A DNA stretch of 64,000 bases from Candidatus Competibacteraceae bacterium (lineage in GTDB: Bacteria > Pseudomonadota > Gammaproteobacteria > Competibacterales > Competibacteraceae): assembly GCA_027492875.1 (NCBI GenBank), contig JAPUDV010000073.1, positions 1-64,000 on the forward strand, written 5' to 3'. A program made the position numbers and the translations under genes. Positions within the stretch are counted from its first letter, which is position 1; each line of letters starts with the position of its first letter. Of the stretch, positions 14,239 to 19,223 are shown piece by piece. A model generated the notes under the pieces. That model was not told where the DNA came from. It made no database searches and was given only the letters and a program-made list of their open reading frames with translations.

Positions 14239-15483
14239 ATGAGCGTTACCGTGAACCTCGGTCAGGCCATTCACGCACTGTCGGATACCCTCGATCTGGT
14301 CGGCGTGGACGAGGTGTTCCACGGCAAGCGGGTCGGGTTCATGGCGCTGCAATGCGGCCGCGCGCTCGGCCTGGGCGAGCCGGCGCTGGAAGACGTGTTC
14401 CACGCCGGGCTGCTGCACGACTGCGCGGTGTCGTCCACGACCCTGCACCGGCGGCTGATCAACGAGCTGGACTGGGATGGGGCGGATACCCACTGCGTCC
14501 GGGGCGGCGAACTGCTCGAACCGTTCGCGCCGCTCGCCCATCTGGCGCCCATCATCCGCCACCACCACACCCACTGGGAGGCGTTTCCCGCGCTGAAAAT
14601 CCCCGAGAGCACCGCCCGGCTGGCCAACCTGATCTATCTGACCGACCGGGTGGACGCGCTGACCATCCCGCACTACGAGCGCGATCTGCTGCTGGCCCGG
14701 CACGCCGTCCGTCAGACGATCTGGCGGTTGAGCGGCTCCTTTTTTGCGCCGGACCTGGCGACGCTGTTCATGGATCTGTCCGCCAGCGAGGCGTTTTGGC
14801 TCAGCCTGGAGGCGCGGCATCTGATCCGGTTCGTCTACGAGCGGGAGCGGGAATCCCTTCTGGTGCCGGTCAGTTTCCCCGAGTTGCGGCAACTCGCGCT
14901 GCTGTTTGCCCGGGTGGTGGACGCCAAGAGCCCCTACACGATGGAGCATTCCCTGGGCACGGCGCGGCTGGCGCGCGCGTTGGCGGAACGGTTCGGTCTG
15001 CCGGCCGAGACCTGCGAAAAAATCGAGGTCGCCGGGCTGTTGCACGATCTGGGCAAGTTGCAGGTGCCGGACGAGATTCTGGAAAAGCCCGGCCCGCTGA
15101 CTCCCGGGGAGCAGGCCATGATCCAGCGCCATAGCTTTGAGACTTACCAGATTTTGCGCGGCATCGGCGGTCTGGAGGACATCGCCGTTTGGGCCGCCTA
15201 CCATCACGAGACGCCCGATGGCCAGGGCTATCCGTTCCATCGCGGCGGCGCGGAGTTGACCCTTGAAATGCGGATCATCGCGGTGGCCGATGTCTTTCAG
15301 GCGCTGGCGCAACGGCGGCCTTACCGGCAGCCGCTGTCTCCGGCCCGGATTTTGGAGATGTTGCGAGCGTTCGCGGGGCAGAACTGCTTGGACGGCGCGG
15401 TGGTGGAGCGAATCGGGGAAGATCTGGAGTCGAGCTGGCGGGCCGCGACCGGCGCGGATCCGGACGAACAGGGGAGTCCGTGA
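14239..15483 (+). CDS. HD-GYP domain protein (probable c-di-GMP phosphodiesterase)
   Basis: ATG 14239 follows GGAGAG at a good distance; a longer frame from 14161 lacks one. The 414-residue protein has two HD-type domains. The first (GLLHDCAV, then IIRHHHTHWEAFP) is divergent. The second is a full HD-GYP domain with VAGLLHDLGKLQVPDEILEK (HD at about residues 269-270), later YHHETPDGQGYPFH and IIAVADVFQALAQRRPY. HD-GYP enzymes hydrolyse cyclic di-GMP. The DGQGYP loop is a good match to functional members. No receiver domain is present, so the input is probably the first HD region. Its stop overlaps the GTG of the TopoIII-RecQ gene by 4 bp, implying co-translation. Confidence 0.88.
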   Translation: MSVTVNLGQAIHALSDTLDLVGVDEVFHGKRVGFMALQCGRALGLGEPALEDVFHAGLLHDCAVSSTTLHRRLINELDWDGADTHCVRGGELLEPFAPLAHLAPIIRHHHTHWEAFPALKIPESTARLANLIYLTDRVDALTIPHYERDLLLARHAVRQTIWRLSGSFFAPDLATLFMDLSASEAFWLSLEARHLIRFVYERERESLLVPVSFPELRQLALLFARVVDAKSPYTMEHSLGTARLARALAERFGLPAETCEKIEVAGLLHDLGKLQVPDEILEKPGPLTPGEQAMIQRHSFETYQILRGIGGLEDIAVWAAYHHETPDGQGYPFHRGGAELTLEMRIIAVADVFQALAQRRPYRQPLSPARILEMLRAFAGQNCLDGAVVERIGEDLESSWRAATGADPDEQGSP

Positions 15484-18400: not shown

Positions 18401-19223
18401 TTACCAGGAAATCGGCCGCGCCGGGCGCGACGGCCAGCCCGCCCGCGCCATCCTGCTGTATTCCTACGCCGATCTGCGCACCCACGAGTTTTTTCTCCGG
18501 CGCGGCTACCCCGAGCCGGAGCGGCTGGCGGCGATTTTTCAGGCGCTCGGCGGCGATCCGCAACCTCGGGCGCTATTGCGCGACCGGTCGGGCCTGGCGC
18601 TGGAGGAGTTCGAGGCCGCGGTGGAAAAGCTGTTGGTGCATGGTGGCGCCCGACGCGATGTCGAGGGCAACCTCAGTCGCGGCGAAGACGGCTGGCGCCC
18701 GCCCTACCAGCGGCAGCGCGAGCACAAGCAGAGCGAGTTGAAGCAGATTCTGGATTTTGCCGACCAGGCGACCGGTTGCCGCATGGTGCGGCTGGTGCGG
18801 CATTTCGGCGACCGGGACGACGACCAGCCTTGCGGGATCTGCGACGTGTGCGCGCCGGAAGCGGCGGTGGTCCGGCGCACCCGCCGCTTGAGCCGCGTCG
18901 AGAGCGAACGGGCCTTGCAGGTGTTGGACGCACTGCGCTGGCGCGAGGGTCAAACGCCCCGCCAGTTGTGCGAACGGCTGACGGAGGGGCAGGTCGAACG
19001 GCGGGAATTCGAGCGGCTACTGGAGGCGATGGCCGGCGCCGGTCTGCTCGAATTGCGCGAGGACACCTTCAGTCGCGACGGCCAGGTGATCCCCTTCCGC
19101 CGGGTTTACCTGACCGAGGCGGGTCGAAAGGCAGGGATCGGCGAGGCGGGGGCGGTGCGGTTGCGGGAGGTGGCGACCAGGAACGGGGCGCGGCGCAAGC
19201 GGAGCGGGGGCCGGGGGCGCTGA
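15480..19223 (+). CDS. DNA topoisomerase III-RecQ helicase fusion protein
   Basis: One uninterrupted 1247-residue frame starts at GTG 15480 (MSVAVVAEKPSVARDI). Residues 1 to about 640 are a type IA topoisomerase of the TopB kind. The Toprim part has AEKPS (Glu8) and ATDAGREGELIFR (Asp104). The active-site Tyr is Tyr327 in LISYPRTDSRHL, and GLGTPATRADIIETLLKR comes later. No C-terminal zinc ribbons are seen. Residues of about 665-1200 are RecQ: Walker A MPTGAGKS (Lys706), VDEAHCISQWGHDFRP (DEAH 799-802), the arginine-finger motif QEIGRAGRDGQPA, and a four-Cys zinc site (GCRMVRL, then CGICDVC) followed by a winged-helix region and a basic tail. No HRDC domain is apparent. Separate TopoIII and RecQ proteins cooperate in decatenation and double-Holliday-junction dissolution, as do Sgs1/BLM and Top3. 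Here they are one chain with a short acidic linker (about residues 645-665). Confidence 0.95.
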   Translation: MSVAVVAEKPSVARDIAKVLGARQRGEGFLHGNGYVVTWAIGHLVRLAEPHEIDPAWKRWRRELLPLLPERWPLVVGEQTRDQFEAVRRILNDEAIERVICATDAGREGELIFRYLYEAAGCSKPFSRLWISSLTPDAIRQGFARLRDGCEFDPLAAAARGRSQADWLVGMNLSRAYTLACGVPGDEALSVGRVQTPTLAVVVERDLAIRAFVPEDYREVVATFAPEVGADSQVSRYQGIWFRGERPEPKAKRLPADGEDAARIVARARTGQAAVESRAAETRRAAPPLLYDLTELQRHANRLYGFSAATTLDLAQKLYEQHKLISYPRTDSRHLSSAVAATLGAVVAAIQPFYPDRLAPDCGQRPLGKRFVDDAKVTDHHALIPTPLPVRAALAADERKIYELICRRLLMAWHDDHLWAVTTLITTITTVETEGATVVDRYHSSGTAVEQVGWKVLEVSTVPAAEKVAGKRKAKAAAATEESEAEQSLPPGLTVGLPLRILDARALAKQTRPPQRLTEAALLTAMETAGRALEDKELSAAMKDSGLGTPATRADIIETLLKRRYLTRDGKALNATERGIGLIQAVQPPIKSPVMTGEWEARLKRIQRGEADLDGFMAAIAGYVGEAVGQAFAVARPTLPPSPLAMSIEGESQDAPRREPVPVDRLLELLQTAFGLPGFRLHQEPVCRIVTEGRDVLLVMPTGAGKSLCFQLPGIARAGTTLVVSPLIALMEDQVAKLCELGLRAERIHSGRDRAASRQVCVAYLQGQLDFLFIAPERLSVPGFPEMLAKRKPALIAVDEAHCISQWGHDFRPDYRTLGQHLPLLRPSPVIALTATATVLVQDDIVRQLDMPEATRSIHGFRRANLAVETVETPLAERHAAVGRVLADPGRRPAIVYAPTRKETEALALELGTDYPAAAYHAGMDPRERERVQGLFGASRLQVIVATIAFGMGIDKPDIRTVIHTALPGSVEGYYQEIGRAGRDGQPARAILLYSYADLRTHEFFLRRGYPEPERLAAIFQALGGDPQPRALLRDRSGLALEEFEAAVEKLLVHGGARRDVEGNLSRGEDGWRPPYQRQREHKQSELKQILDFADQATGCRMVRLVRHFGDRDDDQPCGICDVCAPEAAVVRRTRRLSRVESERALQVLDALRWREGQTPRQLCERLTEGQVERREFERLLEAMAGAGLLELREDTFSRDGQVIPFRRVYLTEAGRKAGIGEAGAVRLREVATRNGARRKRSGGRGR

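What the first reader, a model, noticed from the sequence alone, without database searches (positions are those of the whole stretch)
15480..19223. Topoisomerase III and RecQ helicase fused in one polypeptide
Seen: one uninterrupted frame carries a complete TopB-type type IA topoisomerase (Glu8, Asp104, Tyr327) followed by a complete RecQ helicase (Walker A Lys706, DEAH 799-802, four-Cys zinc site, winged helix). Known: separate TopoIII and RecQ act together on double Holliday junctions and catenanes, as do Top3 with Sgs1/BLM. Inferred: this is a natural single-chain dissolvasome with 1:1 stoichiometry. TopB lacks its C-terminal zinc ribbons and RecQ its HRDC, as if the fusion replaced these interaction modules.
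Basis: partly seen in the sequence, partly recalled or inferred. Interest (0 to 1): 0.72.

Follow-up and report, generated by a model that had tools for sequence, protein, structure and literature searches.

The report
Fused topoisomerase III and RecQ helicase
One bacterial gene joins a DNA-untangling enzyme (topoisomerase III) to a DNA-unwinding motor (RecQ) in a single protein; this fusion arose once, is found in at least four bacterial phyla, and gives a direct way to test whether the two enzymes really work as a team in bacteria, as they do in human cells.

Summary
Window 15480-19223 (+) encodes one 1247-residue protein: a topoisomerase III (TopB) core (residues 1-632), a ~20-residue disordered linker, and a RecQ helicase with zinc site and winged helix (660-1218). 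It is not an assembly error: 24 of 39 genomes of its family have it in one open frame. Fusions 51-61% identical occur in another gammaproteobacterial family, Acidobacteriota, Myxococcota (about 32 of 284 genomes) and Bdellovibrionota. All catalytic residues are invariant in 35 fusions. In the TopB tree all fusions form one clade (SH-aLRT 100). In the window's family canonical RecQ occurs only in three genomes, all without the fusion, so the fusion appears to replace separate recQ and topB. The missing TopB zinc ribbons do fit the fusion. Most likely it is a single-chain helicase-decatenase for recombination or replication intermediates; the activity is inferred. Searches of the held open-access papers found no description, though PADLOC holds a profile of this architecture, probably mislabelled DpdF. 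New variant of a known kind, useful because RecQ-topoisomerase III partnership is disputed in E. coli.

The parts
15480..19223 (+). topB-recQ fusion gene, 1247 aa, GTG start
   Evidence: homologous full-length fusions
15470..15476 (+). AGGGGAG, possible ribosome-binding site 3 nt before the GTG start
   Evidence: sequence, (inspection only)
15480..15483 (+). 4-nt overlap (GTGA) of the start codon with the stop of the upstream HD-domain gene; possible translational coupling
   Evidence: that neighbour is found beside the fusion in 3 of 5 family genomes examined
15480..17375 (+). TopB-type type IA topoisomerase core (residues 1-632): Toprim 4-133; E8, K9, D104, E108, Y327, R329
   Evidence: PDB fold match to E. 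coli topoisomerase III
17376..17456 (+). linker (residues 633-659), variable in length and sequence, pLDDT below 50 at 638-653
17457..18491 (+). RecQ helicase lobes 1 and 2 (residues 660-1004): K706 Walker A, DEAH 799-802
18516..18680 (+). extra winged-helix-like element between helicase lobe 2 and the zinc site (residues about 1013-1067)
   Evidence: secondary structure of AF2 models; assignment is inference
18687..18851 (+). RecQ zinc-binding domain (residues 1070-1124), Cys 1100, 1118, 1121, 1124
18894..19112 (+). winged helix of the RQC region (residues about 1139-1211)
   Evidence: secondary structure; RecQ core fold match
19113..19220 (+). short basic tail (ends KRSGGRGR) in the place where most fusions outside this family carry HRDC

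Best explanation
The gene encodes a bifunctional DNA-processing enzyme: an ATP-driven RecQ-type helicase tethered by a short flexible linker to a topoisomerase III-type decatenase. Most likely the helicase opens or branch-migrates joined DNA (double Holliday junctions, hemicatenanes, converging forks, precatenanes) and hands the single-stranded DNA it makes to the tethered topoisomerase, which cuts one strand with Tyr327, passes another strand and reseals. In this family it takes over the jobs of separate RecQ and TopB. Shown here: architecture, conservation of both active sites, a single clade for the TopB half, presence in several phyla, and absence of canonical RecQ and stand-alone TopB from the window's genome (canonical RecQ also absent from the other fusion-bearing family genomes). 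Inferred: the enzymatic activities, their coupling, and the substrates.
For: Open frame in 24 of 39 family genomes, more broken only at contig ends. Fusions in Acidobacteriota, Myxococcota, Bdellovibrionota and a second gammaproteobacterial family. Catalytic residues of both halves invariant in 35 fusions. TopB tree: 55 fused rows plus 2 apparent singles form one clade at SH-aLRT 100, and both singles end at contig ends. Canonical RecQ (TIGR01389 above cut-off) in the family only in G007, G011 and G017, none of which carries the fusion; the only other type IA topoisomerase in the window's genome is topA. Adjacent recQ and topB genes 23 bp apart in Listeria and side by side in L051 are an independent association. 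AF2: both halves confident, linker disordered; folds match E. coli topoisomerase III and RecQ cores. Published biochemistry: E. coli RecQ stimulates topoisomerase III in vitro (as cited in PMC13244152 and PMC7140829).
Against: No activity data. In E. coli a RecQ-topoisomerase III interaction has not been seen physically and genetics points to RecG instead (PMC13244152, PMC7140829). The RecQ halves are not one clade against stand-alone RecQs (AU p = 0.0002), and two Acidobacteriota genomes keep TopB with a decayed RecQ lobe (L138, L139), so the physical link can be lost. pTM 0.55 gives no defined contact between halves.
Confidence: 0.68

Rival explanations
1. The fusion only co-expresses two enzymes; the halves act independently on different substrates and the flexible linker has no mechanistic role.
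For: Linker is disordered and unconserved in sequence and length; stand-alone RecQs lie nested among fused ones; decayed-RecQ fusions exist (L138, L139).
Against: The fused TopB clade was never found as an intact stand-alone TopB gene; the fusion persists across four phyla; canonical RecQ is absent where the fusion exists in this family.
Confidence: 0.22
2. It is an ATP-dependent topoisomerase with its own topological output, analogous to reverse gyrase (an SF2 helicase-type ATPase fused to a type IA topoisomerase).
For: Same two enzyme classes in one chain; reverse gyrase is the known precedent (PMC8185306).
Against: Opposite domain order; reverse gyrase model far below its cut-off (81.6 against 471.7 bits); the motor is a RecQ with zinc site and winged helix.
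Confidence: 0.05
3. It is an anti-phage defence component (DpdF), as PADLOC labels the matching profile.
For: PADLOC PDLC02865 'DpdF' matches the protein with 1566 bits.
Against: NCBIfam DpdF equivalog not met (194.6 against 550 bits); DpdA above cut-off in 0 of 11 fusion-bearing genomes; no defence genes among the neighbours examined; presence in most genomes of the family. The profile itself spans TopB plus RecQ, so the label looks like a clustering error.
Confidence: 0.03
4. Assembly or sequencing artefact joining adjacent topB and recQ.
For: None beyond the possibility; draft genome of 146 contigs.
Against: Same fusion in dozens of independent assemblies with variable linker lengths and no stop.
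Confidence: 0.01

Closest known systems
Separate topoisomerase III (TopB) and RecQ, as in E. coli
   Same: Both catalytic cores and folds; E. coli RecQ stimulates topoisomerase III in vitro (literature)
   Different: Two separate proteins with no observed physical interaction and a disputed genetic link; the Toprim motif here is DxG instead of DxD
Eukaryotic dissolvasome: BLM-TopoIIIalpha-RMI1/2, Sgs1-Top3-Rmi1
   Same: RecQ-family helicase physically joined with a topoisomerase III
   Different: Joined here by covalent fusion rather than by protein contacts and RMI1; no RMI protein was looked for or found; topoisomerase is N-terminal
Reverse gyrase
   Same: SF2 helicase-type ATPase and type IA topoisomerase in one chain
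   Different: Helicase-like part is N-terminal there; here it is a C-terminal RecQ with zinc and winged-helix domains; model score far below cut-off
PADLOC profile PDLC02865 (labelled DpdF)
   Same: Covers the same TopB-RecQ architecture in one profile
   Different: Label implies a phage-defence role that the genomes tested do not support

Membership tests
Topoisomerase III (TopB) | Sequence above curated cut-off of the TopB family | tested here: met
   TIGR01056 548.9 against 515.75; NF005829 643.1 against 597
Topoisomerase III (TopB) | Type IA active site: Toprim Glu, first Asp, catalytic Tyr with Arg | tested here: met
   E8, D104, Y327, R329 invariant in 35 fusions; second DxD Asp is Gly106
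Topoisomerase III (TopB) | Decatenation-loop insertion | tested here: inconclusive
   A segment at about 245-258 aligns to the E. coli loop region; not compared structurally
Topoisomerase III (TopB) | Decatenase activity | not testable with these tools
   needs enzyme assay
RecQ helicase | SF2 RecQ motor above family cut-off | tested here: met
   TIGR00614 364.7 against 219.8
RecQ helicase | RQC: four-Cys zinc site and winged helix | tested here: met
   Cys 1100/1118/1121/1124 invariant; winged helix in model and RecQ core fold match
RecQ helicase | HRDC domain (optional in the family) | tested here: not met
   Absent here and in 12 of 12 family fusions; present in 25 of 29 other fusions
Canonical bacterial RecQ (TIGR01389 equivalog) | Score over equivalog cut-off 640.2 | tested here: not met
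   425.7 bits; a distinct RecQ subfamily
Reverse gyrase | TIGR01054 cut-off and N-terminal helicase-like module | tested here: not met
   81.6 against 471.7 bits; domain order reversed
DpdF (Dpd defence) | NCBIfam DpdF cut-off and presence of DpdA | tested here: not met
   194.6 against 550 bits; DpdA above cut-off in 0 of 11 genomes
RecQ-topoisomerase III dissolvasome | ATP-dependent dissolution of double Holliday junctions to non-crossovers | not testable with these tools
   needs biochemistry

The most novel reading that the evidence does not exclude
A single ancestral fusion gave bacteria a single-chain dissolvase that is now found in at least four phyla, displaced separate RecQ and TopB, and couples helicase stepping to strand passage in cis.
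Probability: 0.5. Interest if true: 0.72.

Novelty: new variant of a known kind. Interest (0 to 1): 0.6.

Why it matters
Whether RecQ and topoisomerase III form a working unit in bacteria is disputed: a 2020 review finds little evidence for a 'toposome' in E. coli (PMC7140829) and a 2026 study names RecG, not RecQ, as the partner (PMC13244152). A natural, conserved fusion that keeps both active sites is strong comparative evidence that the pairing is functional in other bacteria. It also offers a one-chain enzyme for asking whether the two catalytic domains touch or communicate, which a review of dissolution lists as unresolved (PMC4109787).

Tried and rejected
Assembly error or hidden frameshift near 17400-17470: rejected by conserved open frames in many assemblies. 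Internal translation start for a separate RecQ: the in-frame ATG at 17415 has no upstream ribosome-binding site by inspection and is not conserved even in the nearest relatives; other internal starts were not excluded. Plasmid or phage origin: no record among 72,556 plasmids or 50,697 phages covers 80% of the protein. Conserved operon partners: none found outside the family. DpdF defence role and reverse gyrase: rejected (see rivals). Monophyly of the RecQ halves: rejected by AU test, read as later loss of the TopB part or RecQ gene movement. An rRNA operon was suspected at the ORF-poor start of the window and not found; it is a CRISPR array. The organism name was not established.

Full report
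OBSERVATION. The frame at window 15480-19223 (+) is uninterrupted and encodes 1247 residues from a GTG start. Pfam finds Toprim, Topoisom_bac, DEAD, Helicase_C and RecQ_Zn_bind in order. NCBIfam TopB and RecQ subfamily models are passed; the canonical RecQ equivalog, reverse gyrase and DpdF equivalogs are not.

IT IS REAL AND WIDESPREAD. In the window's family, 24 of 39 genomes carry the fusion in one open frame, a few more are broken at contig ends, and one (G035) looks frameshifted; identity runs from 66 to 90% (the count is mine). A scan of species genomes found fusions in Bryobacterales and other Acidobacteriota, Myxococcales and a Bdellovibrionales bin. Sampling by group gave two genomes of a second gammaproteobacterial family, about 7 intact fusions among 347 Acidobacteriota, and about 32 among 284 Myxococcota (my counts, from frames that hold both halves). 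Linker length varies from about 10 to over 100 residues without stops, which no single assembly error could give. No fusion was found in plasmid or phage collections.

BOTH HALVES LOOK ACTIVE. In 35 aligned fusions E8, K9, D104, E108, Y327, R329, K706, DEAH 799-802 and the four zinc cysteines are invariant. The second Asp of the Toprim DxD is Gly106, also invariant. AlphaFold2 of residues 1-1200 gives mean pLDDT 85.5 but pTM 0.55, with the linker below 50: two firm bodies with no defined mutual position. The RecQ half alone gives 90.8 and pTM 0.84. Fold searches return E. coli topoisomerase III and RecQ catalytic cores first. An extra winged-helix-like element lies between helicase and zinc site (inferred from the models).

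ORIGIN. In the TopB tree all fused rows sit in one clade (SH-aLRT 100), near stand-alone TopBs, two of which (L103, L131) carry C-terminal zinc ribbons (Pfam for L103; by eye for L131; tree). The two apparent stand-alone members of the clade end at contig ends. The RecQ halves belong to a subfamily common as stand-alone, HRDC-bearing RecQ in Acidobacteriota; fused and stand-alone forms are intermixed and one fused clade is rejected (AU p = 0.0002). The simplest reading is one fusion, followed by several losses of the TopB part or movement of RecQ genes. In G656 and G696 the RecQ part is truncated and has lost DEAH (sequence read for L139), while a complete stand-alone RecQ lies elsewhere.

HRDC AND ZINC RIBBONS. 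HRDC is present in 25 of 29 complete fusions outside the family and 42 of 44 stand-alone relatives, but in 0 of 12 of this family, where a basic tail takes its place. So HRDC was probably lost after the fusion, in this lineage.

REPLACEMENT. The window's genome has one other type IA topoisomerase, topA, and no canonical RecQ; its other RecQ-like proteins are a PsyrT-like helicase with a phosphoribosyltransferase domain and a large helicase with a nuclease-like domain. Across the family, canonical RecQ passes its cut-off only in G007, G011 and G017, which lack the fusion; some fusion-less or incomplete genomes have neither. In other phyla the two can coexist (G406 has separate RecQ and TopB-like genes).

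FUNCTION. The best-supported view is a tethered helicase-decatenase for joined DNA molecules. Independent support for the pairing comes from adjacent recQ and topB genes in Listeria, 23 bp apart. Activity and coupling in cis remain untested. Published work leaves the bacterial partnership open (PMC7140829; PMC13244152), and a review notes it is unknown whether the two catalytic domains ever touch (PMC4109787).

KNOWN OR NEW. Ten text searches of the open-access library found no description of this fusion; most subscription papers were not searchable. PADLOC holds a profile of this architecture labelled DpdF, but DpdA is missing from 11 fusion genomes, so the label is probably wrong. I rate it a new variant of a known kind.

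Noticed in passing
window 794-6800: CRISPR array of about 86 copies of a 37-nt repeat (CTTTGAATCCTTGCCCTGATGAAGAAGGGATTAAGAC), spacing 68-73 nt; the genes examined between 8191 and 23286 include no cas genes.
   Followed up: partly
PADLOC PDLC02865, matched by the protein at window 15480-19223: A defence-database profile labelled DpdF is in fact a TopB-RecQ fusion profile (1499 positions) and will mislabel these proteins as phage defence.
   Followed up: partly
L004 1411-3552 (G000 contig C74): RecQ-like helicase with a phosphoribosyltransferase domain, matching PADLOC PsyrT with 989 bits; similar-sized RecQ-like proteins in other family members.
   Followed up: no
L138 and L139 (G696, G656): TopB joined to a truncated RecQ lobe 1 that has lost the DEAH motif, with a complete RecQ elsewhere in the genome: apparent decay of the fusion.
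   Followed up: partly
L128, L129 (G016, G001): Large proteins (1300-1800 aa frames) combining a RecQ-like DEAD helicase with a UvrD-type helicase domain in one chain.
   Followed up: no
window 14161-15483: HD-domain (HD-GYP-like) gene overlaps the fusion start by 4 nt; two homologous stretches of it lie upstream of the fusion in G016.
   Followed up: no
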